The notes beneath the pieces are model-generated. The model was not told the DNA's origin. It saw nothing but the letters and a program-made list of their open reading frames with translations, and did not search any database. The translations under genes and the position numbers were made by a program. From contig JAFWOT010000005.1 of assembly GCA_017509785.1 (NCBI GenBank), positions 1-54,093 of the forward strand: a stretch of 54,093 bases of DNA, read 5' to 3'. Each line of letters begins with the position of its first letter. The stretch's first letter is position 1. This document shows, piece after piece, positions 14,107 to 49,473 of this stretch. The DNA is from Clostridia bacterium (GTDB taxonomy: Bacteria; Bacillota; Clostridia; Christensenellales; CAG-138).

Positions 14107-14157
14107 GTTTCCTCCTTTTGATGTTTCTTTGTCCTCAGAAGCCGTTAACAAATCGAA

Positions 14158-15764: not shown

Positions 15765-15817
15765 AAACCGTCCCCCGCCTAAACGCTTTGGATTATCCCA
15801 TCCGGGCCTCGCCCGGG

Positions 15818-16705: not shown

Positions 16706-16718
16706 AGAGGTTCTCCTT

Positions 16719-18002: not shown

Positions 18003-18010
18003 AGTCCACC

Positions 18011-18850: not shown

Positions 18851-18872
18851 GTATTAACACCTTTTGTACTGG

Positions 18873-19817: not shown

Positions 19818-19829
19818 GCTTGGCTCCTT

Positions 19830-20831: not shown

Positions 20832-20845
20832 CGCAGCACCTCCGT

Positions 20846-21346: not shown

Positions 21347-21347
21347 T

Positions 21348-22442: not shown

Positions 22443-22443
22443 T

Positions 22444-22848: not shown

Positions 22849-22850
22849 GG

Positions 22851-23861
22851 TTAAAACTCCTCCCCGCATTCACGGAGCATGGCTCCGTAATTGGTCATTC
22901 TTCCGTCACCGGTCACTTCCTCTTTGCGTCCGAACTTCCATGAAAGCTTGTACATAAACGTGTCGCCCTCGGTGTAGCGTTTGAAGCTTTCCGGATCGTA
23001 CGGGTCGGAAAGGTGCATTATCAGATCGTTTCGGAGCATATTGTTCTTCTCCGGCAGGGTGTCTATCGTCTCGCGCACACAGGGAATGGACCTGTACGCA
23101 AGCTCGAAGATATAGTCGAGCATCAGATAATCAACGGCCTTGTCGCTGTTTTTCCAATACTCATGCAGGCAATCGCGCGCAAACGAGAACAGAGGGAACT
23201 CCTTCCTGCCCGCAAGAACGTATCCCACCCAGCGCGAACGAGACATATTGACGTGGCTTTCCGACACCGCGCGGCAGGTCCAGAACGGCGCCCTGAGCAA
23301 TTCCTCGGAGGCGTCCTGCGACCACCAAACCGTGGCTCCTGTGAAGAAGCCGCCTTCCGCCGCAAGTATGGACACCACCATCAGGTCGCAGATGTGCTGA
23401 AGCGCGATCTTGCCCTCCGCGTGCTTACGCAGGACGTGCTCCGGGATCTCAAAATGATCGCGGTAATTGTCCTTATCAAGCGTAACGATCGGCTGATGCG
23501 TATGCCGTCTTGCACTATCGATGCACATACGGAAAAGCTTGTCCGCATTTTGCTCGCCCTGCCACCACATACTCCACACCTTCAGCGTCGGATTCGGCTC
23601 GCCGACGTCCGAAGGAGTAGCCATATTCCTGTACTTATTCAGCGTTTCAGGGCACTTTCCTTCTATGTAACGCAGTATCCAATCGTGTTTTTCGTCGGAC
23701 AGCTGCTCTGCCTTTTCCGTCTTTCCGAAAAGCTGAGCATAGTTAAGTCTGCGATTGATCTTCGCAAGCTCCTTGGATACGAGGCAGGCGTCCCTGTAAT
23801 TCTCGCGGTCCTTCCGGAGCCAGCGCAGATATTTGGACAAGTGCGCGATATTAAAACCCAT
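22851..23861 (-). CDS. Capsular polysaccharide synthesis glycosyltransferase (GT32-like), altered DXD site
   Basis: The protein has 336 residues. LKVWSMWWQGEQNAD, TLDKDNYRDH, HICDLMVVSILAAEGGFF and the downstream layout match Caps_synth/GT32-like transferases (Pfam PF05704 type). In that family the metal-binding segment is usually GGIWxDATV; here it reads GGFFTGATV, so the expected Asp is Gly. The protein may use a different metal ligand or be inactive. The ATG at 23861 follows GAAGGAG; the longer ORF start adds five residues without a good site. It overlaps none of its neighbours but is tightly packed. Confidence 0.8.
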   Translation of the reverse strand: MGFNIAHLSKYLRWLRKDRENYRDACLVSKELAKINRRLNYAQLFGKTEKAEQLSDEKHDWILRYIEGKCPETLNKYRNMATPSDVGEPNPTLKVWSMWWQGEQNADKLFRMCIDSARRHTHQPIVTLDKDNYRDHFEIPEHVLRKHAEGKIALQHICDLMVVSILAAEGGFFTGATVWWSQDASEELLRAPFWTCRAVSESHVNMSRSRWVGYVLAGRKEFPLFSFARDCLHEYWKNSDKAVDYLMLDYIFELAYRSIPCVRETIDTLPEKNNMLRNDLIMHLSDPYDPESFKRYTEGDTFMYKLSWKFGRKEEVTGDGRMTNYGAMLRECGEEF

Positions 23862-29173: not shown

Positions 29174-30085
29174 CTACCCCCGTCTGAGCCGGTTTTTGAC
29201 CCTGCGCCTTACGCGCTTCCACAGAGTGACAAGGTCGCATACGTGGAGCGCAAGATACAGCAGCCTGAATCTGTAGAGCAGCGTCCATCCGAGCCCTTTG
29301 CGGGGCTTGCCGGCGAGCTTTCGCTTTGCCTTTGAAGCCTCAACAAGGTAGAACGCCTTCATGGTGCCGAAGCTGCCCCAATGAATGGCTTTTATACTGC
29401 GCCACTCCCCATTATAATACCACTCGGCGCGCGGAACATCAATATCCGCACGGGTAAAACGGCGGTAAGTATAGAGCCCTACGTCACCGCATTCGACCGG
29501 CCGGCAGCCGTTCACGGCCATTCCGAGGGCAATGACGGGCTCATCCGCAGGATGCTTGAATATCGCAAACGGATACTCGCTGTAGTGTGCCGCAGCCTCC
29601 TTCGCCGTGTCGAACACGTTCTTGCAGACCGGCGTATTCCGAAGATAGTAGACGCCCCCGCTGAAGCTCGGAACAAAGCCTATCCTGTCGCGATATTTGC
29701 CCATGCCGTCGGTCTTAAACCAGCCCCTGTCAGTATCAAGGTCGTCGTATGCGCAGCCGAACACAGAGCAATCGTCCGCCTTTTCAAACAGCTCCCACCA
29801 GCGATCGATATCCCCGTAAACCAGGCAGTCGGCGTCGATGAAGATCGTTTCGTCATAAGGAAGGCAATCGAAAAGCCGAAGCTTATCCATATAGCTGTTT
29901 GAGGGCTCGTCAAGATGCACGACCTTGTCAAACGCGGACGTATATTCGTTCTCTCTGTCGCAAATGATCGCAAAGGGATACCGCCCCGCATTCAGCCTGT
30001 ACGAGCACAGCAGGTTATACGCTATGCGGTAATAATGCTCCTTGCCAGTGGCTATTGTGACAAAGCCTCGATCGTTTGCGTTCAA
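29174..30085 (-). CDS. GT8-like glycosyltransferase
   Basis: The protein has 303 residues. FVTIATGKEHYYRIAYNLL, CDRENEY, LPYDETIFIDADCLVYGDID and a late IHWGSFG motif indicate a GT-A enzyme of the GT8/glycogenin-like group with DAD (in FIDADC) as metal motif. A strongly basic C-terminus (WKRVRRRVKNRLRRG) probably binds the membrane. The best start is the TTG at 30085: AGGAGG lies seven bases before it, whereas the upstream TTG codons have no site. Confidence 0.85.
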   Translation of the reverse strand: MNANDRGFVTIATGKEHYYRIAYNLLCSYRLNAGRYPFAIICDRENEYTSAFDKVVHLDEPSNSYMDKLRLFDCLPYDETIFIDADCLVYGDIDRWWELFEKADDCSVFGCAYDDLDTDRGWFKTDGMGKYRDRIGFVPSFSGGVYYLRNTPVCKNVFDTAKEAAAHYSEYPFAIFKHPADEPVIALGMAVNGCRPVECGDVGLYTYRRFTRADIDVPRAEWYYNGEWRSIKAIHWGSFGTMKAFYLVEASKAKRKLAGKPRKGLGWTLLYRFRLLYLALHVCDLVTLWKRVRRRVKNRLRRG

Positions 30086-30129
30086 TCGTTCCCCTCCTCT
30101 TCGTTCCAACAAGAACCCTTTGCACTCAG

Positions 30130-36072: not shown

Positions 36073-37278
36073 TCAGATTCTCTTTCTGATCATTACGCGA
36101 AAACTTGACGGAAGTACCGCGCTCGCCATCAAAACCACGCGTTTCAGTTTCTGTTTTGCAGGTTCCCTTGAGCGGTACGCTCTCACCGCTTTTTCAACGG
36201 GGGCGCCGCTTTTCAAAAGCTCCATCGCCTCGCGGTGGGCAGCGGCGTCGGCATAGCCCGCCATATTCTGCGCCCGAAGCATCTCCTCAGGCGTGCCGGG
36301 GTCGAGCGCAATCACCGCGCCGGAGCGAAGCAGTTCCTCTATGGCGGCGCGGCCCGCGTCGGTCAGCGCGAACGCGGCCGATACGCCGTCGCTGCGGCTT
36401 TGGTAACGCCTGCCCCAATAATCGCCTATCCTGAGGTCCGCAAGCGAGACCTCCTTTCTGAGGCTGCAGGTCATGCAGGCGTCGCCCAAAAGCACGTTTT
36501 CAAAGTAAACCTGCCAGAAAAGCTCCCTCTCCCGCGTGCCGTAAAACGTCCTGCCGTTTGCGTCCGCCCGAATGCAATAGCTGTGCCAACCGTCCTTCTT
36601 GTACCTGAAGCGCAGGCTGTCGAACCTGTTGGCTTTGAGCTTTTTGCGGATGCGCTCGGTCTGCTTATCCCACAGGCCGACGGGCGGCACCCCGTGGCAG
36701 AATATCTCGACAAGCAGGAACCTGTCGCGCACCTTCGATACCTCGCAGGCCTTCGCAAGCCCCGCGATCTGGCAGGGCGTGCCGAACACGGTGAACCGGG
36801 CGGAAGGGTCCTTTTTGGCCTCCGCAAGCGCATTGCGGAACGCCTCCTGCGGGTCGCTCTGCAGGTATTTGGAGCCATCGAGCGCCGCAATACCGGCCTC
36901 CGTGCAGACCGTTTCGTGACGCACGCGGTCGGTCCGCGTATCGTAGACCGCGCCCATCGCTTTGCCTCCGCCACGCACGGTCCATAGCGCGAGCTCGTGC
37001 GCGAGGCCCCCCGAGGAGCAGTTTTTGATCGTTTCGGGGTTCGCGCTCTGAACGGCGTAAAGGGGGCTCTCCCTCAGATCGCACCCGGCGACCTCATCCG
37101 AGAACCTGTGACAGACCCGTGTACACAGCCCGCAGCCGACGCATTTTTCACCGCAGACGCGGGCCGTCAGCAGGCCGGTTTCGTCCGGCTTCAGCACTAT
37201 CGCTCCGTGCGGGCAGACCGCAGCGCACGCGCCGCAGCCGGAGCAGGGCCATTCGGTTTGCCTGTTAACGCTGTCCAT
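36073..37278 (-). CDS. FrhB-like iron-sulfur flavoprotein of EPS loci
   Basis: The protein has 401 residues. Two [4Fe-4S] ferredoxin motifs lie at the N-terminus (CSGCGACAAVCP at about 12 and CVGCGLCTRVCH at about 45), followed by FrhB/FdhB-type N- and C-terminal domains (NCSSGGLAHELALW, VFGTPCQIAGLA, GDYWGRRY). In methanogens FrhB carries FAD and reduces F420; relatives in bacterial EPS loci have no established reaction. The start overlaps the pyruvyltransferase by 14 bases, so the two are coupled. The pairing recurs in Clostridia EPS clusters to my knowledge, suggesting a redox step linked to pyruvyl or a related modification. Confidence 0.85.
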   Translation of the reverse strand: MDSVNRQTEWPCSGCGACAAVCPHGAIVLKPDETGLLTARVCGEKCVGCGLCTRVCHRFSDEVAGCDLRESPLYAVQSANPETIKNCSSGGLAHELALWTVRGGGKAMGAVYDTRTDRVRHETVCTEAGIAALDGSKYLQSDPQEAFRNALAEAKKDPSARFTVFGTPCQIAGLAKACEVSKVRDRFLLVEIFCHGVPPVGLWDKQTERIRKKLKANRFDSLRFRYKKDGWHSYCIRADANGRTFYGTRERELFWQVYFENVLLGDACMTCSLRKEVSLADLRIGDYWGRRYQSRSDGVSAAFALTDAGRAAIEELLRSGAVIALDPGTPEEMLRAQNMAGYADAAAHREAMELLKSGAPVEKAVRAYRSREPAKQKLKRVVLMASAVLPSSFRVMIRKRI

Positions 37279-38365
37279 TTTTTACCCGCTCCAAAGCGTT
37301 TTTCAGATACTCGCCGCTCTCTTCGGCAAGCGCGCGTATGCGCCCGTCGGTTTCGGCGTAATCGACCGGCTCCGACAGCACCCGCTCAAGCTCCGCCTCG
37401 GTTATGGCGCTCAGCCGCCGCCCCTGCAAACCGGTCACTTCAAGCAGGGACTCCAGCTTGAAGGCGTTGATGCTCTTCCTCACAAACACGGCGACGCGGC
37501 AATGGTTTTTCATGGCGACGACGCTGCCGTGGAAGGTGTCCGTCACGACGCAGGCGGCCCCGCGGAAATACCCGTACCACTCCTCCGGCCCGCAGGTGAT
37601 ATTCCTGTCGCACCAGGCGTGATAGGTCCCCGCGGAAACCGTGATAAGGCCGTGCTTTTTGGCATAGGCGCGTATCGCCGCGACCTCGCTCCCGTCCGTC
37701 ATGTTGGAGTCGTACGCATAGACCAGCAGGTACGGCTTACCTATCCGTTTGGTCTGCGCCTTATGATCGCCGTCATACAGCAGCACCGGGTCGCATACGA
37801 GCGGCGCATCCCGCCCGGTCAGGCTCATTATCATCTCACGGGTGTGCGCGTCCCTTGCGGAGAGGGAAAACATGCTCACAAGCCCGTTTTTTACAAGGTC
37901 AAAGCAGCCGAACTCGCGCAGCGTATCCTCCGTGGTCCTGCCGAACGCCGGAGCGTACGCCACGGCCGGCACGCCGCCCAGCCCGTGACCGTACATCATG
38001 GGATTACAGCCGACGTCTATGCTGAACACCTCGTCGCTGCCTATGACTATCGCGTCGCAGCCGCTGCTGTCGTACGGCGCAAAGCTATGCTTTGCAATGC
38101 TGCGGTCGATGGCCTTTACCTTGCGGTAGTTGAAGAGCGTAAGCCCCGGCCCCTTTTCGATGAGGTAGTGCTTAATATAGAACGGGAGCGCCTTCCATGA
38201 GGCGGAGTTGCGTTCCTTCTCGCCCTGCATAAAGTCAAAATTCTTTTTATAGGTCAGTATGACGACCTCATGCCCGAGCCCGCGCAAATAGGCTTCCAGC
38301 GATATCATCTGAAGCTGTGCGCCCATGTTATAAACGTTGTAGTGCGTTAATATACCGACCTTCAT
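37265..38365 (-). CDS. Polysaccharide pyruvyl transferase
   Basis: The protein has 366 residues of the PS_pyruv_trans family. GILTHYNVYNMGAQLQ, IVIGSDEVFSID, AYAPAFGRTTED, LSARDAHTREMI, CDPVLLYD and the late VVTDTFHGSVVAMKNH motif are typical. Family members such as CsaB and WcaK transfer pyruvate from phosphoenolpyruvate to a sugar, forming a ketal that gives the polymer negative charge. It is coupled by ATGA to the upstream GT4 and overlaps the FrhB-like gene downstream. Confidence 0.92.
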   Translation of the reverse strand: MKVGILTHYNVYNMGAQLQMISLEAYLRGLGHEVVILTYKKNFDFMQGEKERNSASWKALPFYIKHYLIEKGPGLTLFNYRKVKAIDRSIAKHSFAPYDSSGCDAIVIGSDEVFSIDVGCNPMMYGHGLGGVPAVAYAPAFGRTTEDTLREFGCFDLVKNGLVSMFSLSARDAHTREMIMSLTGRDAPLVCDPVLLYDGDHKAQTKRIGKPYLLVYAYDSNMTDGSEVAAIRAYAKKHGLITVSAGTYHAWCDRNITCGPEEWYGYFRGAACVVTDTFHGSVVAMKNHCRVAVFVRKSINAFKLESLLEVTGLQGRRLSAITEAELERVLSEPVDYAETDGRIRALAEESGEYLKNALERVKNGQR

Positions 38366-39495
38366 CGTTCCGTCAGCCCCTCCAGTATGCGGGCGAATTC
38401 CTTCTTGACATCGCCCACCGAGTACGGTGCGGCCCTGACCGCCCCGCGTTCGCCGGCTATGGCGCGTTTTTCCGGGTCCTTTGCATAGCTCAAAACAGCC
38501 TCAGCAAAGCCCCGTACGTCCCCGGCGGGTATGAGCGCGCCCGTTTCTTCGGACACAAGCTCGTCATGCCCGCGGTTATGCGAGGCGACGACGGGCTTTT
38601 TGCAGAGCATGGCCTCGATTATGTTGAGGGGCATGCCCTCGCGGCGGCTGCAGGAGACGACGAGATCGACGGCGGGCGTGAGCTTCTCGAGGTCCGTGCG
38701 GTAACCGAGGAGCCGGACGACGCCCTCCAGCCGCTCATCCGAGATCAGCCTGCGGAGCTCCTGCTCCTTGGGGCCGTTGCCGGCGAGCAGCACCTTAAGG
38801 TTCGGGAGCCTGTCCTTCAGGAGCGCGGCGGCGCGGATCAGCGTGCTCTGGTTCTTGTTCTCGTTGAGCTCGCCGGTGCAGAGTATCACGAAATCGTCCT
38901 GGGAAAGGCCCTCCGCCTCGCGCATGGCTCGCTGCTCGGCCTCCGTCGCGGGGTGATAACGGTTTTCGTCGACGCCGACCCCGTGGATGTGCTCCACCTT
39001 AGTGCGCCCGCCGAACTTGCGCTTCGCGAGCTCGTAGTCCTCGTTGTTCACCGTGATGAGCATGTCGCAGAGGCGCGCCATGTGCTTCTCGATCGGGTAG
39101 TAGACGAGCCAGTTTTTCTTCGACGCGCCCTTGAAAAAGTGGAATCCGTGCGCCATATAGACGACCTTTGTGCCGCGCTTGCGGGCCTTTTTCGCGGCAA
39201 GCCGCGTGACTATGCCGCCCATTGGCGTGTTGCAGAGGATCACGTCGTAGTGCTCCTCCGCCAGCAGCTTTTTCAGCTGCCTGTATGCCTTGACGTTGTT
39301 CGGGCTCTTGGGCGAGCGGTCGAACGGGACTTCTATGAATTTGTCGCAGTTTTTGAGCCTGAGGCCGTTTTTGACCGCAAGGTTGTCGTGCGCGGCCACG
39401 TGTACCTCCCATCCCGCCTCCCGCAGGTTCTTCATGTGCGGCAGGTGAAATTGGCAGATGTGGCTCAAAACCGTGGAGGTGTAGAGGATCTTCAT
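38362..39495 (-). CDS. Family 4 glycosyltransferase, EpsD-like
   Basis: The protein has 377 residues. LYTSTVLSHICQFHLPHMK, VDENRYHP and ILCTGELNENKNQSTLIRA, then VVSCSRREGMPLNIIEAM (E-x7-E) match the EpsD-like branch of GT4, often the enzyme that adds the second sugar after the phosphoglycosyltransferase. This gene returns to high GC after the AT-rich cassette upstream. The ATG has only a weak AAAAAG site. Confidence 0.92.
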   Translation of the reverse strand: MKILYTSTVLSHICQFHLPHMKNLREAGWEVHVAAHDNLAVKNGLRLKNCDKFIEVPFDRSPKSPNNVKAYRQLKKLLAEEHYDVILCNTPMGGIVTRLAAKKARKRGTKVVYMAHGFHFFKGASKKNWLVYYPIEKHMARLCDMLITVNNEDYELAKRKFGGRTKVEHIHGVGVDENRYHPATEAEQRAMREAEGLSQDDFVILCTGELNENKNQSTLIRAAALLKDRLPNLKVLLAGNGPKEQELRRLISDERLEGVVRLLGYRTDLEKLTPAVDLVVSCSRREGMPLNIIEAMLCKKPVVASHNRGHDELVSEETGALIPAGDVRGFAEAVLSYAKDPEKRAIAGERGAVRAAPYSVGDVKKEFARILEGLTER

Positions 39496-39523: not shown

Positions 39524-41074
39524 TTACCACGGTAAAGCATTGTTAATGCCATAGTACACTTTTTCGAACAGTTCTCTCTTCTTTGTCTCGTTTCCGTTTA
39601 CAACATGGATGCCGAGCTTTTCGATCCTGTCATCCATCGTGTTCATCATATCCTTCTGAAGCTGATCATCGATTCTTTTTCTCAGCGGAGTACGCAGCAT
39701 CATATCAAGCAGCGCCCTGTTGTTATAAGGAACGGTTATCTCGTTGGAAAGCATATGCTCTCCCGTTAGAGCCATGCCGCCCCATCCTCCAAACACGATC
39801 TCCCACACAAAGAATTCCGACCATGGATAGTCCGTGTCATTCAACGCATCTTCGAGTCCGGTTTTTTTAAGATACTCTTTGAATCTTGCATCGGTTCTGA
39901 CCGCATCCCCTCTGTTAAGCAAGAACACTTTATACATTGACGTCAACATCCGCGGACGAATCTTGCGTGGGAACGACTTTTTGCCGTACTTTTTATATCG
40001 GCTTGCCCTTGCCACTTCAGCGACCCAAGATTTAACCTCCACGTCATAATCAAACTTTTCTTTCAGAACGATCCGCTTGCAAATATCATTAGCGTTCGCC
40101 TTTCCCAAGAATGCATAATGCCGTTCAAGCAGCTTGGAAACCTCTTTATAATCCGGATATGAGTTGGGGTTGGTATCGACGTCATAGATCCTGTGTTCAA
40201 GTCCCAACGCCCCACATATGCTCTGTGCCGCAAGCGCATCGTCCTTCTCTCTCGGCAAAGAAACGTAGCTGAAGTACGCAAAACGCTGCTGCACGCCTTT
40301 TGCGCATGCAAGTGTGGTTTTGCTGTCCGTGCCTCCGGTCAGCGAAATGGCCGGCCTCTCCCATTTGTCCGCGATCAAGCGCATAGTGTTGTTCATAACC
40401 TTGCAGATCGCAGCAACACGTTCCTCATACTCCTTACCGACTGCTTCAGTATAGGGCCTTCTCGGATAAAATCTGTTAACGGTGATATCGTCGTCAACCC
40501 TCACTTCGGTATTCGGCACGATCCTCTTTACCTCAGGGTACGGAGTGAGATCCCCGGGCAAATACCACCCGTACAGATGAAACAGTTTCGACCTTTTAAG
40601 GCTTGATACGTAGGGATCCTCTTTGAGACCGTAAATATCTGCGATCATATTGCTGTACGCGCTGAAGCATTTGGCGCTCCCCACGACCGCATAATTAGCC
40701 CCAAGCATACCGGCGCAATCACATAGGGCGGTTACAGCATCTCCTTCTATAACAGCATAAAAGAAAACGCCTGTCAGACAGTCAATGCTGTCCCGGTATG
40801 CTTCCGATCCAAACTCGAAGGATGCCAAGTGTTTCAGTATTTCTTCTTCATTGGCAGTCATGGAAAACGGATCGTATGCATGACCTACAAGTATGTATGC
40901 GCGTCCGTGTGCTTCAAAACAGTAAAACCTTTGTTCAGGGTGTACAAAAAGGCGAAAACCTCCGACACTTCTGCTTTTCCACTCGCCAAGCATGGCAAGC
41001 TTCCGCAGGGCGGAGTCTTCATCGTTTGTCAGCAAATAGCCAAACGTATATAAGCTTTTAGTCCAATCAGTCAT
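39524..41074 (-). CDS. Asparagine synthetase-like ATP-dependent ligase without glutaminase Cys
   Basis: The protein has 516 residues. The C-terminal AsnB-type synthetase domain contains the PP-loop SLTGGTDSKTT at 244-254, in which ATP is bound and the substrate acid adenylated. The N-terminal domain (about 1-200) retains the Ntn-fold outline (LTGVFFYAVI, CAGMLGANYAV) but starts MTDWTK, lacking the Cys2 needed to release ammonia from glutamine, as in beta-lactam synthetases. It should therefore join an acid and an amine, or use free ammonia, and not act as a normal asparagine synthetase. The start overlaps the second ATP-grasp reading frame in ATGA, placing it in the hydroxyacid cassette. Confidence 0.85.
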   Translation of the reverse strand: MTDWTKSLYTFGYLLTNDEDSALRKLAMLGEWKSRSVGGFRLFVHPEQRFYCFEAHGRAYILVGHAYDPFSMTANEEEILKHLASFEFGSEAYRDSIDCLTGVFFYAVIEGDAVTALCDCAGMLGANYAVVGSAKCFSAYSNMIADIYGLKEDPYVSSLKRSKLFHLYGWYLPGDLTPYPEVKRIVPNTEVRVDDDITVNRFYPRRPYTEAVGKEYEERVAAICKVMNNTMRLIADKWERPAISLTGGTDSKTTLACAKGVQQRFAYFSYVSLPREKDDALAAQSICGALGLEHRIYDVDTNPNSYPDYKEVSKLLERHYAFLGKANANDICKRIVLKEKFDYDVEVKSWVAEVARASRYKKYGKKSFPRKIRPRMLTSMYKVFLLNRGDAVRTDARFKEYLKKTGLEDALNDTDYPWSEFFVWEIVFGGWGGMALTGEHMLSNEITVPYNNRALLDMMLRTPLRKRIDDQLQKDMMNTMDDRIEKLGIHVVNGNETKKRELFEKVYYGINNALPW

Positions 41075-42056
41075 GCGCGTCCTTCCAATAAGTCTGAAAA
41101 CAGTTTGCGATGCCCTCTGTTATATAGAGTCTGTTCCATGTAGAATTCAGCATCCCAGTTTCCCTCTATCATGACTGGCCCTGAATCTGTTACTGCTATA
41201 TCCCAAGAAGTATATCTCAGCTGTGGTGTAACATTAGCAGCGCGAATCGCAAGCTCCTTGACTTTTTCCCAATCTGGAATCATAAATCCGGTAAGGGACG
41301 ATTAGTCTTCGGATGGACTTTATACTTTTGAAAATGCTTGTCCATAGCGGGTGTTTCGATAATGCCGTTGGCAATGTTGATTCCAGCGGCCATACCTCCA
41401 GAATGAACATTATCAACTATCGTATCATTGCCAAATCGAATTATTGCAGTTACGATCTTCGGTCCTTCAGGTGTTTGAAGAACTGTCACCTTAATGGTGT
41501 TTAGCGATTGAGGATGTATCTCTTTAATTCGTTCATGGTTTTCAACAACAGGCTCCGCTACAACATCCGCAGTCATATTGTTCCATATCTCTCTTGCGTC
41601 CTCTATAGTTTCAACTTTTACCTTTTTTGCACCTTCTCCGCCCCATCCAACTGATTTTTTTATAAACAAATCACGGTATTGCATTGAGAATTCGATAAAC
41701 TTCTCTAATCCTTCTCTTTTCGAATACTGTTCTCTATTCAAAAGCTCTGCATAATAGAGAACTGCCAGTGACTTATTTCCAATCCTTTCGCGAAGTTCCA
41801 ATGGATTATACCGGTCGAAAAAGCTAAACATATGCCTTCTGGTCATATAAGTAAGCTTCTCGCTGCGTTTTTTTGCATAAAAACCATATCCTGCAAACTC
41901 AGAGAAGCTTGTTCCATAAATGATATAACTCGCTATAGCCTTTATCGCAAACGTCGGCAAACTAATGTGCATCTTTTTGGGAAGCATTTCGTCCGCATTG
42001 ACAAGGTCATTGTAATAGGTTTTTAACTTTTTTATATTGGAAAGCTGCATAACCAT
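41071..42056 (-). pseudogene. Sugar-transfer-associated ATP-grasp gene with frameshift
   Basis: The first frame (42056 to 41280, 258 codons) encodes an ATP-grasp N-terminal and central part (LFIKKSVGWGGEGAKKV, VVAEPVVENHERIKEI, NTIKVTVLQTPEGPKIVTA, NVHSGGMAAGINIANG) and stops after HPKTNRPLPDL. The second frame (41283 to 41071, 70 codons) continues the same protein: MIPDWEKVKELAIRAA, SWDIAVTDSGPVMIEGN, with the C-terminal metal ligands. Restoring one base just before 41290 gives RPLTGFMIPDW, as the family expects. The break could be a mutation, a sequence error, or a real ATGA-coupled split, because the stop and restart overlap in ATGA. ATG at 42056 or 42050 (AGGAGG site). AT-rich. Confidence 0.85.
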
Positions 42057-42070
42057 TCTCCTCCTTTAGA

Positions 42071-43159
42071 TTATTTTTTGGATTTACTTAATAATTGGAT
42101 AATTACTTCTTCCGTTAAATCACCAAACAGAGGTCCATTACAATACTGGGGAAGAATGATGCCCGGCCAGTAAACATTATACTCAATAAGGACAGGTTCC
42201 TTATGTCTATCAAGTGTGATATCAAAACCAACGATATCAAAATGCTGTAGTCCTTCATGGACCGTCAAAGCAGTATCAATTATCTTACTAAAATTGGGGA
42301 TGTCCATCTGCTTTTCAATTCCGAGATCGGAAATAAGATTCCTTCTTCCATCCATATCATACCATTCTTTGGCAACCTTTCCCGCCTTGTTTACTGCACA
42401 AACATGTGCGATTTCCTTGCCTTTAATAAAATTCACATCAGTATGGAATCCTGGTGTCCCAAAGCGAAGCGTAGAATGAAGATGATGCAGTTTCCCATTC
42501 AACCTCAAGGTGTAGACACGGATGATGTTGACAGAACTATCATTATATATTGCTAAAGATTCATGTTGTTCAACGACCTGTTGAACAACATAGTTCGTTC
42601 CAAAGTTTTGCAGTTTTTCTTTTAGACTTATATAGTCATGCTTTCCTGTTTCAATTAACTCGACTCCTCGCCCCTCCATCCCATACGACGGTTTAACGAT
42701 GATTTTGTCAAATCCTTTTAAAATAGTTTTCGATACGCTTTCAATGTCAGCAATTTTATAGTCTTTGTCGTAAAACAATCCGTCAATCATAAAAGCAATC
42801 ACGCTAGGCTGTTTGACTTCAGGAAAAAACCTTGAATAATAAGCCTTATCATCCCAAGCAGGGATCAAATTTGTAGCATTCAGCCTCGGCCATATTTCAA
42901 GACCATATACATCATTCGGAACATAGCGCGCATCAAAGCTGTTTGTAGCTTTATAAAGGCGATGCCACTCGCCTTTTCCCCTATAACCGATGGGTTTCCA
43001 AAGAGAATCAATTGCTTTGATTTCCTGCTTTGTAAGCTTGCAGCATTCATCATGCTCTTTCAAGCTTGACAAAGCCATTTTTCTGTGAACGCTGATCAAG
43101 TGGTTTTCGCTTATTCTGTTAATGGTCCCTGATGCGAGGTCTCGAATTCTACTAATCAT
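42071..43159 (-). CDS. Sugar-transfer-associated ATP-grasp protein
   Basis: The protein has 362 residues. KIIVKPSYGMEGRGVELIE (about 154-172) is the ATP-binding lysine/glycine loop, NYVVQQVVEQHESLA the hinge, and VGFDITLDRHKEPVLIEYNV (about 313-332) carries the acidic metal ligands; SSVNIIRVYTL and LHSTLRFG lie between. This matches the ATPgrasp_ST family, common in EPS and capsule loci and of unproven function; ATP-grasp enzymes join an acid to an amine or hydroxyl through an acyl-phosphate. It is AT-rich and abuts a very GC-rich gene, overlapping it by 8 bases. GGGAGAG is the binding site. Confidence 0.85.
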   Translation of the reverse strand: MISRIRDLASGTINRISENHLISVHRKMALSSLKEHDECCKLTKQEIKAIDSLWKPIGYRGKGEWHRLYKATNSFDARYVPNDVYGLEIWPRLNATNLIPAWDDKAYYSRFFPEVKQPSVIAFMIDGLFYDKDYKIADIESVSKTILKGFDKIIVKPSYGMEGRGVELIETGKHDYISLKEKLQNFGTNYVVQQVVEQHESLAIYNDSSVNIIRVYTLRLNGKLHHLHSTLRFGTPGFHTDVNFIKGKEIAHVCAVNKAGKVAKEWYDMDGRRNLISDLGIEKQMDIPNFSKIIDTALTVHEGLQHFDIVGFDITLDRHKEPVLIEYNVYWPGIILPQYCNGPLFGDLTEEVIIQLLSKSKK

Positions 43160-44075
43160 GTTTCTCTCCCAAGAACAGATTGTTCTTCACACACTTCCAC
43201 AGCCTTTCGCCGTTGCCGTCGCTCACGAAGCTGTTATGCGGGGTGAGGACGGTATTGGGCGCATCCCAGAGGGGGCTTGAGGGGGGCAGGGGTTCGGTCT
43301 CGAAGACGTCGAGGACGGCGCCGGAGAGGGAGCCGTTTACGAGTCTTTGAGCGAGGGCGTTCTCGTCGAGGACGGGGCCCCGCGAGATGTTGACGACGAC
43401 AGCGTCCTTCGGCATGAGGCTGAGGCGGCGGCCGTCGATGAGTCGGACGGTCTCCGGGGTGAGCGGCACGCAGAGGACGAGCACGTCGGTGGTTTTGAGG
43501 GCCTCATCGAGCCCTTCAAGAGGGAGCATGGTGTCGTACGCCGCGTCCGTTCTCGGCGCGATATCGACGCCCGTCACCCTGCAGCCGAAGGCCGAGAAGC
43601 GCTTCGCGCACTCGGTGCCGACGCTGCCGCAGCCGACTATCGTGACGTTTTTTCCGCAGAGCTCCCTGAGCCCGCGGTGCTTTTCCCAGCGGCGGACCTT
43701 GCGGTTTTCACGGAAGAACTCCGCCTGCTTATAGAGCTGCAGCACGCCGCAGAGGGCGAATTCCGCCATAGGCACGCTGTAGACCCCGCCTGCGTTATGG
43801 ATCTCGATCCCGTGTGCGCGGACGAAATCCATGTCCACGCGGTCGTAACCCGCGCTCGTGAGCTGAATGAGCCGGAGGTTCGTGAACCGGTCTATCGGGT
43901 GGTGGAGGAACAGCCCGTTGCAGATGACGCCCTCTACCCATTCCGCTTCACAGGGGAGCGGGTCGCTCTCCTGCCGAAGGAACACCACGCGGTGCCCCAT
44001 GGCGGTGAGCTCATCCATATGAGTCTCCGCTTCCCGCCACGCTCCCGTGACGAGCAAATTCATTCCCCCGCTCAT
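43152..44075 (-). CDS. D-2-hydroxyacid dehydrogenase
   Basis: The protein has 307 residues of the D-isomer-specific 2-hydroxyacid dehydrogenase family. The Rossmann motif VGCGSVGTECAKRF lies at about 148, the substrate-binding Arg in NISRGPVLDE, the Glu in FETEPLP and the catalytic His in LTPHNSF. It should interconvert a 2-oxoacid and a D-2-hydroxyacid with NAD(P). Family members include D-lactate, glyoxylate and phosphoglycerate dehydrogenases; the substrate is not determined here. The start overlaps the aldolase stop in ATGA, so it probably reduces the aldolase's product or consumes its substrate. Confidence 0.92.
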   Translation of the reverse strand: MSGGMNLLVTGAWREAETHMDELTAMGHRVVFLRQESDPLPCEAEWVEGVICNGLFLHHPIDRFTNLRLIQLTSAGYDRVDMDFVRAHGIEIHNAGGVYSVPMAEFALCGVLQLYKQAEFFRENRKVRRWEKHRGLRELCGKNVTIVGCGSVGTECAKRFSAFGCRVTGVDIAPRTDAAYDTMLPLEGLDEALKTTDVLVLCVPLTPETVRLIDGRRLSLMPKDAVVVNISRGPVLDENALAQRLVNGSLSGAVLDVFETEPLPPSSPLWDAPNTVLTPHNSFVSDGNGERLWKCVKNNLFLGEKHD

Positions 44076-44908
44076 TCCTCGGCTCCCTTTGTAATGAGCC
44101 CGACGAGGCGGACGAGCTCCCTCTCGTTATCGTAGAAGAAGCGGCTGTGCCTCTCGCACTCCTTTTCAAGCTTGCGGATCTCCTTGACGCCCCGGAGGAA
44201 CGTCGCGTTGATGACGCCGATATGGTTGACCTTGTCGACGTCGCAGAAGCTCCTTGAGAGTATCACGCAGCCCGAACCGAGCCTGTAATGCTCCTTGATT
44301 ATATATTCAGAGGGAAGCATCCCGTTGCCCACCGAGGCGACCCCGCCGAAGCCGAAGGGGATGCCCTTCTTGCGGAATTTGAAGCAGAGCTGCTCGACTG
44401 TCCCGTCGGCGAGAAGCTCGAACATGAATTTGCGCCCGTAGCCGATGCTGAGATCGTTGAGGCCGATGTGTATCTCGTCGATGCCCGGGAGCTCGAGTAT
44501 CTCGTCGATCCTCTCGACGGCCTCCGGCGTTTCGATGAGGAGCATCGTCTTCGCTCTGCCGTTAACGAGGCGGAGGAATGTCCCGACCTCCTCCACGGTC
44601 TTGAAATAGGGCAGCATTATGATATCCGCGCCGGCTTTTACAACGGCGTCGATCTCCTCCTCCGAGGAGGGGTAATCGGGAAGCGCATCGTGAATGGGGT
44701 TGACTCTGACAAGCACCTCCGCGGTCTCAACGCTGCGCTTTATCCGCGCCGCGTCCTCCACCGTATGGTGGGATTTCACGGTATCCATGCCCTTTTGCCG
44801 GACGTCCTTGCCGATGAACTCCATATCAACAAAGATCCGGTCGACGCCTGCGGATTCCGCTATCTGCGCGATATCCGGCCTGTTTGTGATGTACATGAGT
44901 TTAAGCAT
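44072..44908 (-). CDS. HpcH/HpaI-family aldolase
   Basis: The protein has 278 residues. DRIFVDMEF at about 25, LVRVNP, IMLPYFKTVEEV, LLIETPEAVERI (with the metal Glu) and IHIGLNDLS (metal Asp) match the class II pyruvate-dependent aldolases HpcH/HpaI. These cleave or form 4-hydroxy-2-oxoacids using pyruvate or related ketoacids. The ATG at 44908 is fixed by GGGGGGAGGT seven bases upstream; the longer frame upstream overlaps the sugar transferase. Coupled to the D-hydroxyacid dehydrogenase, it may build the acid part of an unusual glycan substituent. Confidence 0.9.
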   Translation of the reverse strand: MLKLMYITNRPDIAQIAESAGVDRIFVDMEFIGKDVRQKGMDTVKSHHTVEDAARIKRSVETAEVLVRVNPIHDALPDYPSSEEEIDAVVKAGADIIMLPYFKTVEEVGTFLRLVNGRAKTMLLIETPEAVERIDEILELPGIDEIHIGLNDLSIGYGRKFMFELLADGTVEQLCFKFRKKGIPFGFGGVASVGNGMLPSEYIIKEHYRLGSGCVILSRSFCDVDKVNHIGVINATFLRGVKEIRKLEKECERHSRFFYDNERELVRLVGLITKGAEE

Positions 44909-44933: not shown

Positions 44934-45599
44934 TCAGCTTTCCGCCCCGTCCTTATTGCTCTCCGGCGCGACCGTTGCGCCCTTGTTCTCATTGTCGGCG
45001 TTGGTGAACACCTTGCCGACCGTCACAAGAAGGATCTTCAGATCCAACGGGAACGATACGTTATCCACGTACCAGCAATTGAGCTCAATGCGCCTATGCC
45101 ACTCCACGTCCTTGCGCCCGTGCACCTGCGCCCAGCCTGTGATGCCGGGACGCACTTCGAACATCCTGCGCTGTGCGGAGGTGTAGTTTTCCGCCGGCCA
45201 CGGGTGGTAGGTGAGCGGCGGCCTCGGCCCGATGAGCGACATATCGCCCTTTAAGATATTGAGGAGCTGCGGCAGCTCGTCGATCGAGGTCTTCCTGAGC
45301 AGGCGCCCTATCCCCGTCATGCGGGGATCCTTATCGTCGCTGTACACGCCGGAGCCGGTGTGTTCGCTGTTTTGGCGCATGGTGCGGAATTTGTAGATGG
45401 TGAACTCCTCCGCGTTCCGCCCGAGCCTCTTCTGCCTGAATACGGCCGGGCCTTCGGAGGTCGCCCTCACGAGGAGGGCGGTCACGAGCATCAGCGGCGA
45501 GAGCACAACGAGCCCGATCCCGGAAACGAGTATGTCGATCCCCCTCTTGACGAACCTGCAATAAAAGCCGCGCGCGCCCTTTTTCGAGTGCTTCTCCAT
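44934..45599 (-). CDS. Initiating phosphoglycosyltransferase (bacterial sugar transferase)
   Basis: The protein has 221 residues. A membrane-inserted helical hairpin lies at about 20-45 (ILVSGIGLVVLSPLMLVTAL) after a basic CRFVKRG. The conserved KFRTMR, SIDELPQLLNILKGDMSLIG and GPRPPL, then RPGITGWAQV, define the monotopic PglC/EpsL-type enzymes; the DE pair in SIDELPQ is catalytic. It transfers a sugar phosphate from UDP-sugar to undecaprenyl phosphate, the committed first step of EPS synthesis. The ATG at 45599 is one base after the upstream stop; the longer frame lies in the repeat tail of the kinase gene. Confidence 0.95.
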   Translation of the reverse strand: MEKHSKKGARGFYCRFVKRGIDILVSGIGLVVLSPLMLVTALLVRATSEGPAVFRQKRLGRNAEEFTIYKFRTMRQNSEHTGSGVYSDDKDPRMTGIGRLLRKTSIDELPQLLNILKGDMSLIGPRPPLTYHPWPAENYTSAQRRMFEVRPGITGWAQVHGRKDVEWHRRIELNCWYVDNVSFPLDLKILLVTVGKVFTNADNENKGATVAPESNKDGAES

Positions 45600-45600
45600 A

Positions 45601-47064
45601 CTATTTGCCTTCCTTGCCGGAGGCGGAGGAATAGCTGCCGTAACTGCCGTAGCGCCCGTAGTAGCCGTAGCGCCCGTAACGCCCATAGCGACCGTAATAG
45701 CCGTACTTCCCGCCGCCGGAGCGGCCGCCGTTCAGTATGCAGCCGGTTATCGGCGCGCCCGTCTCGGCGATCTCCTCTATGCCGTTGACTATGTAGCGGC
45801 GGCGCGCGTAATCGCTCATTATCACGTAGGCTATGCCGTCGACCTGTTTTACGAGCATCATCGCGTCGACGAGCACGGCGGAGGGCGGGGTATCGAGAAT
45901 GACCATATCGTACATCCCGCGGAGGTGATCGAGCAGATTGGTCATAGCCTCGCCGCTCAGCATCTCCGCCATTCGGGACGTCGTCCCCGCGCCGGGCATG
46001 ACCGTGAGCCCCGTGGGTTCGCCGTTGCGCATGACCTCAACGAGCGCGTCATCGACCTTCGACTTGCCGTCGAGCACGGAGGCAAGCCCGGGGTATTTCC
46101 CCGTGAGGTTGAACATCCTGCCGACGGAGGGGTTCCTGAGGTCGCAGTCAATGAGGACGACCTTCATGCCCCTCAATGCCATAGAAGCCGCGAGGTTTGC
46201 GGCAACGGTGGATTTGCCCTCGCCCGCGACGGAGCTCGTCACCATGAGGACCTTGTTCATGCCGAGGTCGCGTTCTATGCGCGTCCTAATGAGGCGCATC
46301 GCCTCAATGTATTCCTCCCTGTTGGAGTCGTAGAGTATGTTGATATCCACCCTGGGGCTGTTGCGGCGCTCCTTCTTGCGGCACACGGGGAGCGTGCCGA
46401 GGAAGGGCACGTTCACGACCGAACGGAGCTCATCCTCGCTGCGGATGGTGCGGTAGACGAGCGAACGGAGCACCACGAGGGCAAGGCCGATAACGGCTCC
46501 GATTATGGCGCCGTTGCGGACCGACCCGCGGACGACCGCCGCCCTGCCGGTATCCCTCGGGACGCCGCTCTCGTCGATGACTGTGAGCGCCGTCTGGCCG
46601 ACTACGTACTGGGCGACGTCCGGGTAATTGGTCAGCACGGAGCGAAGCACCCTGTACGCGAGCTCGGGATCCCCGCCGCTGACGGATATTGTAAGAAGGT
46701 TAGTGCCCTTTATGCAGTTGGCGCTGATGGAGCCCGGCACGTAGCCCATGCCGAGATCGGCGGCGACCACCTCGGAGAGGACGCCGCTGTTGAGTATGTA
46801 GGGGAATATAAGGCCCATCTGCTCGGCGGTGTTGCGGTTGGCGAACGAGCCGCCGTTTACGAGCTCGACGGAGACCGTCGCCTCGGCGGTGTAGGAGGGG
46901 GAATAGCTCCTCCTCACCCTGAAATACGAGAACGCCATCGCCGCCGCTACGATGAGAAGGACGAGCCACCAAAGCCTCCTGAAGCTGTGGAAGAAATCCG
47001 AAAGGAAGGCTTTAATGTCTATCATGTCGAGCTGCTGCTCGTTTTTGACTTCGGACTCGCTCAT
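45601..47064 (-). CDS. Wzz-BY-kinase fusion with Tyr-Gly tail
   Basis: The protein has 487 residues. An N-terminal Wzz chain-length domain lies between two helices (about 33-52 and 180-200), followed by a CpsD-type bacterial tyrosine kinase: Walker A SSVAGEGKST, Walker A' VVLIDCDLRNP and Walker B MVILDTPPS. The C-terminus is a tail with eleven tyrosines in YGR/YGS units (from about 450), the autophosphorylation cluster. In Gram-positive loci CpsC and CpsD are usually separate; here they are fused as in Gram-negative Wzc. It regulates chain length and export under the control of the CpsB phosphatase. GAGGAAGG precedes the ATG. Confidence 0.93.
   Translation of the reverse strand: MSESEVKNEQQLDMIDIKAFLSDFFHSFRRLWWLVLLIVAAAMAFSYFRVRRSYSPSYTAEATVSVELVNGGSFANRNTAEQMGLIFPYILNSGVLSEVVAADLGMGYVPGSISANCIKGTNLLTISVSGGDPELAYRVLRSVLTNYPDVAQYVVGQTALTVIDESGVPRDTGRAAVVRGSVRNGAIIGAVIGLALVVLRSLVYRTIRSEDELRSVVNVPFLGTLPVCRKKERRNSPRVDINILYDSNREEYIEAMRLIRTRIERDLGMNKVLMVTSSVAGEGKSTVAANLAASMALRGMKVVLIDCDLRNPSVGRMFNLTGKYPGLASVLDGKSKVDDALVEVMRNGEPTGLTVMPGAGTTSRMAEMLSGEAMTNLLDHLRGMYDMVILDTPPSAVLVDAMMLVKQVDGIAYVIMSDYARRRYIVNGIEEIAETGAPITGCILNGGRSGGGKYGYYGRYGRYGRYGYYGRYGSYGSYSSASGKEGK
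45631..45710. repeat. Codon-triplet-based tandem repeat encoding YG-rich tail
   Basis: Imperfect 9-base units of the type CCGTAGCGC / CCGTAACGC code for repeated Tyr-Gly-Arg/Ser on the minus strand. The units are similar at the DNA level, so slippage could change the number of tyrosines. Confidence 0.7.
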
Positions 47065-47074
47065 GCCGCCTTCC

Positions 47075-48610
47075 TCACTTTCCGCTTTCAGAGGAGTCGG
47101 AATGCTCCTCGCTGCTGTAATGCCCGTAGTAGCCGTACGTGCCGTAGCTGCCGTACGTACCGTAAGTGCCGTACTTGCCGTACTTCCCGTACCTGCCGTA
47201 CTTGCCGTACTTGCCGTATCTTCCGTAGCCGCCGTAGCCGACTACGGTCTTCCGCTCGCCGGGGAGCGTGCGGATCTGGTTGAGTATGCAGCCCGCGAAA
47301 TGCGCGTGGCAGACGCGAAGCGCGTCTATCGCGTCGTTGAGGTCCCTCGCCTGAACGAGATCGTACTTGACGGTGAGCACGCTGACGTCGGAGAGATCCG
47401 CAAGGACCTCGGCGTCCGCCATCAGGGACATGGGCGGCGTATCGATTATGACGTAGTCGAAGCTCTCCCTCGCGGCGGAGATGAGATCCGACATGTTATC
47501 GGAAGAGGCGAGCTCGGTCGAATTGGAGCAGCCCTCCGAATTGAGGAGCAGGCAGAGATTGCGTTTTTCATCGCGGACGAGCGCGTCCTCGACGAAGCCC
47601 CTGTCCTCGAGAACGTCCCGCAGGGTGATCGCAGGCGTCTCGCTTTCATCCATGAAGAGCTTCGTCAGCGCGGGGCGGCGCATATCTCCGTCTATGAGGA
47701 GGACGCGGTCGGTCTTTCTCGCAAGGGCGAGCGCGATATTCGCGGCGACGGTCGTCTTTCCCTCATGCTCGCGCACGCTTGTTACGAGTATGACCTTGCC
47801 CCCGTGCTTTTCGGCTTCCGTGGAGACCCTCGCGGCGAGCTTCTTGAACCTCTCTATGAATTCGAAGCCCGCCGTAAGCTCCGTGATGAGGAGCTTGTTC
47901 TTCTTCTTTTTGATGAGCGCGCGGAGCCCTCCGCCGTAATCGTAGAGCTCGCCGAGGGAGTTCGCGTCGAGCTTGTCCTCGAGCTCCTTCTCAGTCCTGA
48001 TGGTCCCCTTGTTATAGGAGAGGAACGCGAACAGCGCCGTCAGCACGACGGCGGCAATGAGGCCCGCCTTCAGCATGCGGCTCCTCGGGGAGGCCATCCA
48101 ATCCGGCTGAGTGGGGACGGCGGGATCCTGCAGTACCTCCATTACCATGTCGCTCGATATATGGCTCGTCAGCTCCTCCATGTTCTTCATGACGGAGCGC
48201 GTTATGCTGTACGTATTCCACGGCGAATCGCTCGTGACGCTGAGAGTCATGAGGTTGGTGTCCGTGATCACGTCCGCGGACATGGCGGCTTCAAAGCTGT
48301 CGACCCCGAGATCCTTGCAGACCTTCGTCTTGAGGAGGCGGCTGTTGAGCACGTTCGTGCAGCTCTCGGCGACGGTCGAAGCCGCGGAGAGATTGTTGTA
48401 GGCGTAGTTGCCGGAGGTCCTCGAGGTTATGACAAAGGTGGCCTTCGTTGAATAGGTGTTCTCCCTTCTCATATGGGCGATCATGTTGACTATCATCGCG
48501 ACTGCCACCGCGCCGAGAATTATAACCCAGAGATTCTTTATAACGTCGCGCAGTATGCTGTAGACGTTTATGGTATCCAGAATGGAGGCTTCGTTGTTCT
48601 TCTCGTTCAT
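47075..48610 (-). CDS. Second Wzz-BY-kinase fusion with longer Tyr-Gly tail
   Basis: The protein has 511 residues from the ATG at 48610. This start is preferred because GGAGG lies seven bases before it, whereas for the ATG at 48616 the site touches the codon. Two helices (about 24-44 and 176-196) flank a Wzz-type domain; the kinase half has a degenerate Walker A (REHEGKTT), Walker A' VLLIDGDMRRP and Walker B YVIIDTPPMS. The tail holds fifteen tyrosines in YGK/YGR/YGT units and ends in an acidic SSEEHSDSSESGK. It is a tandem paralogue of the preceding kinase. GC-rich, EPS regulation as above. Confidence 0.92.
   Translation of the reverse strand: MNEKNNEASILDTINVYSILRDVIKNLWVIILGAVAVAMIVNMIAHMRRENTYSTKATFVITSRTSGNYAYNNLSAASTVAESCTNVLNSRLLKTKVCKDLGVDSFEAAMSADVITDTNLMTLSVTSDSPWNTYSITRSVMKNMEELTSHISSDMVMEVLQDPAVPTQPDWMASPRSRMLKAGLIAAVVLTALFAFLSYNKGTIRTEKELEDKLDANSLGELYDYGGGLRALIKKKKNKLLITELTAGFEFIERFKKLAARVSTEAEKHGGKVILVTSVREHEGKTTVAANIALALARKTDRVLLIDGDMRRPALTKLFMDESETPAITLRDVLEDRGFVEDALVRDEKRNLCLLLNSEGCSNSTELASSDNMSDLISAARESFDYVIIDTPPMSLMADAEVLADLSDVSVLTVKYDLVQARDLNDAIDALRVCHAHFAGCILNQIRTLPGERKTVVGYGGYGRYGKYGKYGRYGKYGKYGTYGTYGSYGTYGYYGHYSSEEHSDSSESGK
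47113..47243. repeat. 9-base tandem repeat encoding YG-rich tail
   Basis: About fourteen consecutive imperfect units of the form GCCGTACTT / CCCGTACCT encode (Lys/Arg/Thr)-Tyr-Gly on the minus strand. Several adjacent units are nearly identical, a pattern prone to slippage. Confidence 0.75.
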
Positions 48611-48612
48611 AC

Positions 48613-49473
48613 TCATTCCTCCACTATAACTATGAGTTCCGCCGTGCCGAGGGCCTCGCCTTCAAGGCCGGTCAGTCTGTAGATGACCTTATATATGCCG
48701 GGGGTCCCGCAGTCGAGCCCGTTTTCGTCGATCGAAACGTTTGCCGCGCTGAGCCTGACGTCCGCAAAGCTTCTGACGCTGCCCGCGGTCCAAACGCCGA
48801 CGACGTACGACCCGAGATCTATCACGCCGCCGCACGGGACGTAAGCTATGTATTCCCTCAGCGCGGGAGCCTGCTGGCTGTAGAGGAGATAATCCTCCAG
48901 GCTGACCGTCAGCTCCAGTACGGAGGTATCGCCGCCGCTGTTCGTCACCTGCACGTTCATCTGCTGCGTGGTCGCGGAGCTGCTGACGGCGGTCGTCTTG
49001 CCGAGGCTTATCTTTATCTGCTGGGTGATAACGCCGTCAAGGCAATCCTCCGCGGACATGTTCTCGAGATAATCGGTGCCGGTCGATCCCGCAGCGTAGC
49101 GAAGCGGCGCCGTAAGATGGAACCTCGGTGAAACGTAATCGACGTACACGACCTCACGAACGAACGTGCCGACGTTCTTGTTCCCGTCGAACGCGGCATA
49201 GTGCACCTGCTGCGTGCCCTTTGCCGTGAATTTCGATTTCGAGACCACCATCAGGGTGTTCGTTACGTCGCCGTCTATTTTGTCGATCGCCTTCATTCCG
49301 CGGAGCAGATCCTCGTCGGTCGCCGATATGCTGACCATTATGGAATCCTCCTCGGCTGTGATATGAGGCGGGTCATAGTCCACGGTCATCCTGCGCTTTA
49401 TGAAGGTATAACCGAAAACAGCCGCCGTCACGACGAAGAACACGATGATGATTATTCGAAGCTTTTTTATCAT
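48613..49473 (-). CDS. Membrane-anchored Ig-like protein (DUF5011-type)
   Basis: The protein has 286 residues. One N-terminal helix (about 4-24) anchors an extracytoplasmic region with two or three beta-sandwich modules. The pattern AIDKIDGDVTNTLMVV then VHYAAFDGNKNVGTF matches DUF5011/bacterial Ig-like units, which often bind carbohydrate or act as spacers. It lies between the CpsB phosphatase and the BY-kinase genes, and its stop overlaps a kinase start. Position suggests a periplasm-facing partner of the chain-length/kinase complex, possibly an analogue of outer adaptor proteins. No close named homologue is known to me. Confidence 0.75.
   Translation of the reverse strand: MIKKLRIIIIVFFVVTAAVFGYTFIKRRMTVDYDPPHITAEEDSIMVSISATDEDLLRGMKAIDKIDGDVTNTLMVVSKSKFTAKGTQQVHYAAFDGNKNVGTFVREVVYVDYVSPRFHLTAPLRYAAGSTGTDYLENMSAEDCLDGVITQQIKISLGKTTAVSSSATTQQMNVQVTNSGGDTSVLELTVSLEDYLLYSQQAPALREYIAYVPCGGVIDLGSYVVGVWTAGSVRSFADVRLSAANVSIDENGLDCGTPGIYKVIYRLTGLEGEALGTAELIVIVEE

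What the first reader, a model, noticed from the sequence alone, without database searches (positions are those of the whole stretch)
39524..44908. Aldolase, D-hydroxyacid dehydrogenase, two ATP-grasp and AsnB-like ligase cassette inside an EPS operon
Seen: five adjacent, overlapping genes encode an HpcH/HpaI aldolase, a D-2-hydroxyacid dehydrogenase, two ATPgrasp_ST proteins and an AsnB-like protein without the glutaminase Cys. Known: the first two families make or change hydroxy/oxo acids, and the last three form acyl bonds using ATP. Inference: together they could make an unusual D-2-hydroxyacid and attach it, or an amide of it, to a glycan sugar. I know of no described pathway with this exact set.
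Basis: partly seen in the sequence, partly recalled or inferred. Interest (0 to 1): 0.72.

Follow-up and report, generated by a model that had tools for sequence, protein, structure and literature searches.

The report
Hydroxyacid-making module for sugar coats
Three of the five reported genes (an aldolase, a dehydrogenase and an acid-activating ligase) recur together beside the gene for a predicted starter enzyme of sugar-coat polymers in dozens of bacterial genomes, and are predicted to make a small hydroxy acid and likely attach it to the coat's first sugars; a fourth gene is split by a frameshift in this genome.

Summary
Two other genomes of the genus have it intact.

The conserved core is phosphoglycosyl transferase (PGT) - aldolase A - D-2-hydroxyacid dehydrogenase B - AsnB-like ligase E - GT4; C and D are accessory. 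Of 58 genomes found with E, 56 carry A, while A is in 20 of 391 genomes of the window's class. A control gene (pyruvyl transferase) goes with A in 5 of 43.

In some genomes A is fused to the PGT, to PGT-GT4, to GT4, or to a CoA_binding_3 protein. Of 24 A loci sampled without regard to E, 12 have B nearby, 4 an L-type dehydrogenase (Ldh_2), 2 a class-IV aminotransferase, 6 none of these; the tree of A needs repeated switches. All three use 2-oxoacids, so A likely makes one.

E's model has the carbapenam/beta-lactam synthetase/AsnB fold, a conserved ATP loop and a lost glutaminase nucleophile. Best reading: a glycan-initiation module that makes a D-2-hydroxyacid and joins it to an early sugar. 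The acid, the acceptor and E's substrate are not shown. The papers searched hold no description.

The parts
44934..45620 (-). Small phosphoglycosyl transferase (PGT, Bac_transf); start codon chosen by me, the ORF can begin further upstream
   Evidence: PF02397 223.6 bits; directly beside A in 61 of 79 distinct A loci and fused to A in 4
44072..44908 (-). A: HpcH/HpaI-type aldolase, predicted to make a 2-oxoacid
   Evidence: PF03328 52.5 bits; R68, E126, D152 invariant in 35 of 35; model pLDDT 93
43152..44075 (-). B: D-2-hydroxyacid dehydrogenase
   Evidence: PF02826 170.6 bits; R232, E261, H280 invariant in 27 of 27; D-2-HADH structures match its profile
42071..43159 (-). C: ATPgrasp_ST ligase, intact, accessory
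   Evidence: PF14397 95.3 bits; in 3 of 59 E loci
41280..42056 (-). D, first piece: ATPgrasp_ST, cut short by a frameshift
   Evidence: intact 324-aa copies in G527 and G528
41071..41301 (-). D, second piece in another frame, holding the end of the ATP-grasp domain
   Evidence: alignment A4
39524..41074 (-). E: AsnB-like ligase without glutaminase Cys
   Evidence: fold match to carbapenam synthetase, beta-lactam synthetase, AsnB; ATP loop conserved in 70 of 70, nucleophile position lost
38362..39495 (-). GT4 glycosyltransferase following E
   Evidence: PF00534 118.3 bits; a relative often follows E

Best explanation
The window carries a glycan-initiation module (PGT, aldolase A, dehydrogenase B, AsnB-like ligase E, GT4) that is predicted to make a D-2-hydroxyacid and likely attaches it, as an acyl-adenylate, to one of the first sugars of an exopolysaccharide. 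Proposed steps: (1) inferred: A joins pyruvate (or a related enolate) to an aldehyde to give a 2-oxoacid; (2) inferred from family and invariant residues: B reduces it to the D-2-hydroxyacid; (3) inferred: E adenylates the carboxylate and passes it to an amine (or hydroxyl) of the first or second sugar without using glutamine; (4) inferred: ATP-grasp C, and D where it is intact, adds a further amide-linked group. Shown: gene order and recurrence, A in nearly every E genome found, fusions of A to PGT and GT4, swaps of B for an L-dehydrogenase or an aminotransferase, loss of E's glutaminase nucleophile. Separate odds: steps 1-2 about 0.75; step 3 with this acid about 0.45; placement on the first sugars about 0.5.
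For: A in 56 of 58 E genomes against 20 of 391 class genomes; control pyruvyl transferase goes with A in 5 of 43 (against 23). In the order sample (121 genomes) E is in 3 and all 3 have A. Of 44 E loci with 4 kb or more upstream, PGT in 32, A in 30, B in 33, A and B in 29, same strand. Fusions PGT-A (L102, Pfam; L131), PGT-GT4-A (L147, L148), GT4-A (L145), CoA_binding_3-A (L093 by Pfam, L052 by likeness). Of 24 A loci: B 12, Ldh_2 4, class-IV aminotransferase 2, none 6; tree needs 3 changes for Ldh_2 and 2 for the aminotransferase. E: fold and ATP loop.
Confidence: 0.48

Rival explanations
1. E (and the ATP-grasps) activate a uronic-acid carboxylate of the glycan and join an amine to it, as Cj1438C does in a Campylobacter capsule; the acid made by A and B is a separate substituent and not E's substrate.
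For: Near E: UDP-sugar dehydrogenase cluster in 11 loci, epimerase cluster in 12, TupA-like ATP-grasp cluster in 9. Cj1438C, a TupA-like domain, amidates GlcA (PMC11800379, passages read). In L044-L047 an aminomutase-like gene follows E, a possible amine source.
Against: No UDP-sugar dehydrogenase was seen among the window proteins scanned (not every ORF of the window, and the rest of the genome was not searched for it). E needs A in nearly every genome found (56 of 58), and A, B and E are often consecutive genes.
Confidence: 0.25
2. A acts on a sugar aldehyde and pyruvate to make a 3-deoxy-2-ulosonic-acid-like residue that becomes part of the glycan itself; B reduces its keto group, and E activates that sugar acid.
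For: Sugar-acid aldolases YfaU and GarL are among A's nearest named relatives; A is fused to PGT and GT4.
Against: No CMP- or nucleotide-activating enzyme for such an acid was seen in the genes examined; swaps of B for Ldh_2 or an aminotransferase fit a small free oxoacid as well.
Confidence: 0.12
3. Two independent modules lie side by side: PGT-A-B for one decoration and C-D-E for another.
For: A and B occur without E (14 of 20 class genomes with A lack E); A and E lie on different contigs or far apart in some genomes.
Against: E almost never occurs without A in the genomes found (2 of 58), and E follows B directly in many loci without C or D.
Confidence: 0.13
4. A and B belong to an unrelated catabolic pathway.
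For: Both families are common in catabolism (general knowledge); another PF03328 gene lies elsewhere in this genome.
Against: A is beside or fused to a PGT in 65 of 79 distinct A loci.
Confidence: 0.02

Closest known systems
Carbapenam synthetase, beta-lactam synthetase, AsnB (AsnB fold family), for E
   Different: 11-14% identity; nothing in the PDB by family profile at E 0.01; substrate unknown; lies in EPS loci with A.
HpaI/HpcH, YfaU, GarL pyruvate aldolases, for A
   Same: Pfam family; aligned metal-ligand region; R68, E126, D152 invariant.
   Different: 21% identity to the HpaI row; insertion with invariant K34, R37, Q38, H48; under every NCBIfam cut-off; fused to PGT or GT4 in some genomes.
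Cj1438C, TupA-like ATP-grasp amidoligase of the Campylobacter HS:2 capsule
   Same: ATP-dependent amide bond on a glycan carboxylate, domain fused to a glycosyltransferase (PMC11800379, passages read).
   Different: C and D match ATPgrasp_ST, not TupA; E is an AsnB-fold ligase; no aldolase is described there in the passages read.
Tetronate (2,4-dihydroxybutanoyl) amide of the Vibrio cholerae O1 antigen
   Same: A 2-hydroxyacyl amide on an amino sugar, the kind of product proposed (PMC6272311 and PMC3441752 seen as listings with the start of the abstract).
   Different: Its genes are recalled to be of other families (acyl-activating and carrier-like); not compared here.

Membership tests
HpcH/HpaI aldolase (PF03328) | Pfam score over the curated cut-off | tested here: met
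   52.5 bits, cut-off 25
HpcH/HpaI aldolase (PF03328) | Arg and two acidic metal ligands (roles recalled) | tested here: met
   R68, E126, D152 in 35 of 35 rows; E126 and D152 regions align with YfaU and HpaI
HpcH/HpaI aldolase (PF03328) | Active-site His base in its usual place (recalled) | tested here: inconclusive
   The DxE motif is followed by an insertion with invariant H48; equivalence not settled
Named NCBIfam aldolases (HpaI, GarL, RhmA) | Score over the equivalog cut-off | tested here: not met
   HpaI 24 bits against 368.8; the others likewise
D-2-hydroxyacid dehydrogenase | NAD and catalytic domains with Arg, Glu, His (roles recalled) | tested here: met
   PF02826 170.6 bits; R232, E261, H280 invariant in 27 of 27
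Glutamine-dependent asparagine synthetase | N-terminal catalytic Cys | tested here: not met
   F11 in the window; C in 2 of 70 relatives and not N-terminal
AsnB / beta-lactam synthetase fold | Two-domain fold and SxGGxDS-type ATP loop | tested here: met
Beta-lactam / carbapenam synthetase | Intramolecular amide formation | not testable with these tools
   fold only
ATPgrasp_ST (PF14397) | Pfam score over the cut-off and Mg-binding acidic/Asn residues (roles recalled) | tested here: met
   C: 95.3 bits, cut-off 31.4, D313, E326, N328 present. D as read in the window scores 84.3 bits but lacks that part
TupA-like ATP-grasp (PF14305) | Pfam match at E 0.001 | tested here: not met
   C and D match ATPgrasp_ST, no TupA match listed

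The most novel reading that the evidence does not exclude
A previously undescribed, CoA- and carrier-protein-free way to acylate bacterial glycans: a membrane initiation complex in which an aldolase, built into the phosphoglycosyl transferase in some species, makes a 2-oxoacid on the spot; interchangeable partners turn it into a D-hydroxy, L-hydroxy or amino acid; and a glutaminase-dead AsnB-type ligase caps the first sugar with it. The swappable second enzyme lets strains vary the chemistry at the root of their coat.
Probability: 0.35. Interest if true: 0.78.

Novelty: new variant of a known kind. Interest (0 to 1): 0.62.

Why it matters
If true, it gives a genome-readable marker for hydroxyacyl (or aminoacyl) decoration of the coats of many gut and rumen bacteria, most of them uncultured, and names the ligase class that does it. 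It makes clear predictions: A loci with B, with Ldh_2 or with an aminotransferase should give different stereochemistry or nitrogen at the same carbon. The fusions of A with PGT and GT4 point to the first sugars as the site, which can be checked on lipid-linked intermediates. It would also give a role to an ATP-grasp family (ATPgrasp_ST) and to glutaminase-dead AsnB proteins found in EPS operons.

Tried and rejected
Catabolic role of A and B: rejected on gene order and fusions. All five genes as one conserved unit: rejected; among the 59 named loci only L042 has the A-B-C-D-E order and L044 has all five in another order. PDB sequence search with E's family profile: nothing at E 0.01; the single-sequence search gave weak, unrelated chains. 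A first alignment of A with another PF03328 protein of this genome used a wrong-frame ORF and was redone; that protein looks CitE-like to me. Class-wide frequencies of B, C and D were not measured; C was searched in 121 genomes of the order (3 hits, the window's genome included). Papers: searches found none; one search found five, by listing general genome or transcriptome papers; one search found one (PMC11800379, passages read); one search found three (listing only); one search found 18, of which 12 were listed, none on such a polymer by title. The library holds open-licence PMC papers only. Prediction of ATP-grasp amidoligases by comparative genomics (Iyer, Aravind and co-workers) is recalled, not seen.

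Limits of the counts. ORFs were called by a simple rule; a first pass lost genes and was redone. Of the 80 A rows, L102 and L150 are one place, so 79 are distinct: PGT directly beside A in 61, fused in 4, near in 4, none seen in 10; those 10 include rows at contig starts (L074, L139, L141), the GT4-A fusion L145, and L123, where a PGT match seen was lost to my overlap filter. One search counts same-strand genes only, so L088 (A and B on the other strand) is not in its A count. L159 and L160 repeat L040 and L041 and were left out. One search used 70 of 74 E ORFs. Pfam was run on some members of each neighbour cluster only; the rest are placed by likeness (L121 with Ldh_2, L114 with the aminotransferase, L118 with the ATP-grasp, L052, L131, L145, L147 and L148 as fusions). 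The tree's bootstrap had not settled. The distinctness of the 32 E genomes not searched rests on their record prefixes.

Full report
What is there. The window is one contig (G000:C28) of a 2.4 Mb genome in 30 contigs, 94% complete. On the - strand an EPS operon runs CpsB-like, two Wzz/tyrosine-kinase-like proteins, a small phosphoglycosyl transferase (PGT), then A (HpcH/HpaI), B (D-2-hydroxyacid dehydrogenase), C and D (ATPgrasp_ST), E (AsnB-like), a GT4, a pyruvyl transferase, an FrhB-like iron-sulfur protein and further glycosyltransferases. The 258-aa ORF ends before the columns that are invariant as D313, E326 and N328 across 15 C and D relatives, so as read it should be inactive (inference). 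Of the 12 other genomes of the genus two carry D, both intact (324 aa) in the order PGT-A-B-D-E-GT4. Whether the break is real or an assembly error cannot be told here.

E goes with A. A scan of GTDB genomes for E's family gave 59 loci in 58 genomes (L069 and L094 share a genome). 32 of these genomes have A in the E locus (in L088 on the other strand). I searched the other 26 whole (27 loci; one of them, L093, also has A beside E): 24 have A. That is 56 of 58. The two misses are seen through contigs of 3,055 and 3,969 bases (L046, L089). In 391 genomes of the window's class A is in 20, E in 7, both in 6 (Fisher 5.5e-8, relatedness ignored); the seventh, G276, has two weak, partial E matches. 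In 121 genomes of the order A is in 6 and E in 3, all three with A. As a control, the pyruvyl transferase two genes after E is in 43 of the same 391, and 5 of those 43 have A. The reverse does not hold: 14 of the 20 A genomes of the class have no E.

The conserved unit. Of 44 E loci with at least 4 kb upstream, 32 have the PGT, 30 A, 33 B and 29 both A and B on the same strand; over all 59, C is in 3 and D in 10. A common order is PGT-A-B-E-GT4; L051, L053 and L058 (records titled WOR-3, Pacearchaeota and Acetofilamentum) have PGT-A-E-B. The other titles are mostly Clostridia and their kin, with one Victivallales record. D is most frequent among the window's near relatives: in L039-L047 it is in 7 of the 8 with enough sequence. 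L042 (Christensenella sp. UBA1214) repeats the window's order PGT-A-B-C-D-E-GT4-pyruvyl transferase-FrhB.

A works at the start of the glycan. In 79 distinct A loci A is directly beside the PGT in 61, fused to it in 4, near it in 4 and without a PGT match in 10, several of these at contig ends or affected by my ORF filter. Fusions are PGT-A (L102, by Pfam; L131), PGT-GT4-A (L147, L148), GT4-A (L145), and a CoA_binding_3 protein joined to A (L093 by Pfam, L052 by likeness). Fused proteins usually share a pathway or complex (general knowledge), so A's product is most likely used at the first one or two sugars.

Where the case is weak. Near E stand clusters whose sampled members are a UDP-sugar dehydrogenase (11 loci), an epimerase (12) and a TupA-like ATP-grasp (9), so a uronic acid could be E's substrate. 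A TupA-like domain, Cj1438C, amidates GlcA in a Campylobacter capsule (PMC11800379, passages read). In L044-L047 a lysine-2,3-aminomutase-like gene lies by E. In five E genomes I saw no B in the loci fetched (L064, L070, L071, L078, L093). I therefore give the full mechanism 0.48 and the uronate rival 0.25.

Novelty. Acylated and amidated bacterial glycans are known, and so are ATP-dependent amidoligases of capsules. A PGT-linked aldolase with an interchangeable oxoacid-converting enzyme and a glutaminase-dead AsnB ligase was not found in the papers searched (open-licence PMC only). I call it a new variant of a known kind.

Noticed in passing
window 12182-22869: Downstream glycan genes: RmlA-, RmlB- and RmlD-like proteins, a DegT aminotransferase with FdtA-like and GNAT neighbours (looks like dTDP-Fuc3NAc synthesis), an Acyl_transf_3 protein and Wzm/Wzt-like ABC exporter parts.
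   Followed up: no
window 45601-48616: Two Wzz/tyrosine-kinase-like proteins in a row, both with long Tyr-Gly-rich C-terminal tails.
   Followed up: no
window 36073-38365: Pyruvyl transferase followed by an FrhB-like iron-sulfur protein; the same pair follows the GT4 in L042 and L091 and lies near E or A in L044, L056 and L137.
   Followed up: partly
L044 11578-12840; also L045, L046, L047: A lysine-2,3-aminomutase-like radical SAM protein (Pfam on the L044 copy) lies next to E in four relatives, a possible source of a beta-amino acid for the polymer.
   Followed up: no
L045 7152-8129, L108 8380-9348, L124 4103-5080, L146: An Acyl_transf_3 membrane acyltransferase (Pfam on the L045 copy) sits between A and B.
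   Followed up: no
L093 8741-9856: VanZ domain fused to the PGT, in the same locus as the CoA_binding_3-aldolase fusion.
   Followed up: no
L114 9442-10704: An ornithine/DAP-decarboxylase-like protein lies between A and the PGT, with the class-IV aminotransferase after it.
   Followed up: no
L062, L068, L075, L076, L097: Two E genes in tandem, which suggests two acyl or amine substrates.
   Followed up: no
window 29174-30112: 312-aa ORF inside the EPS operon with no Pfam match at 0.001.
   Followed up: no
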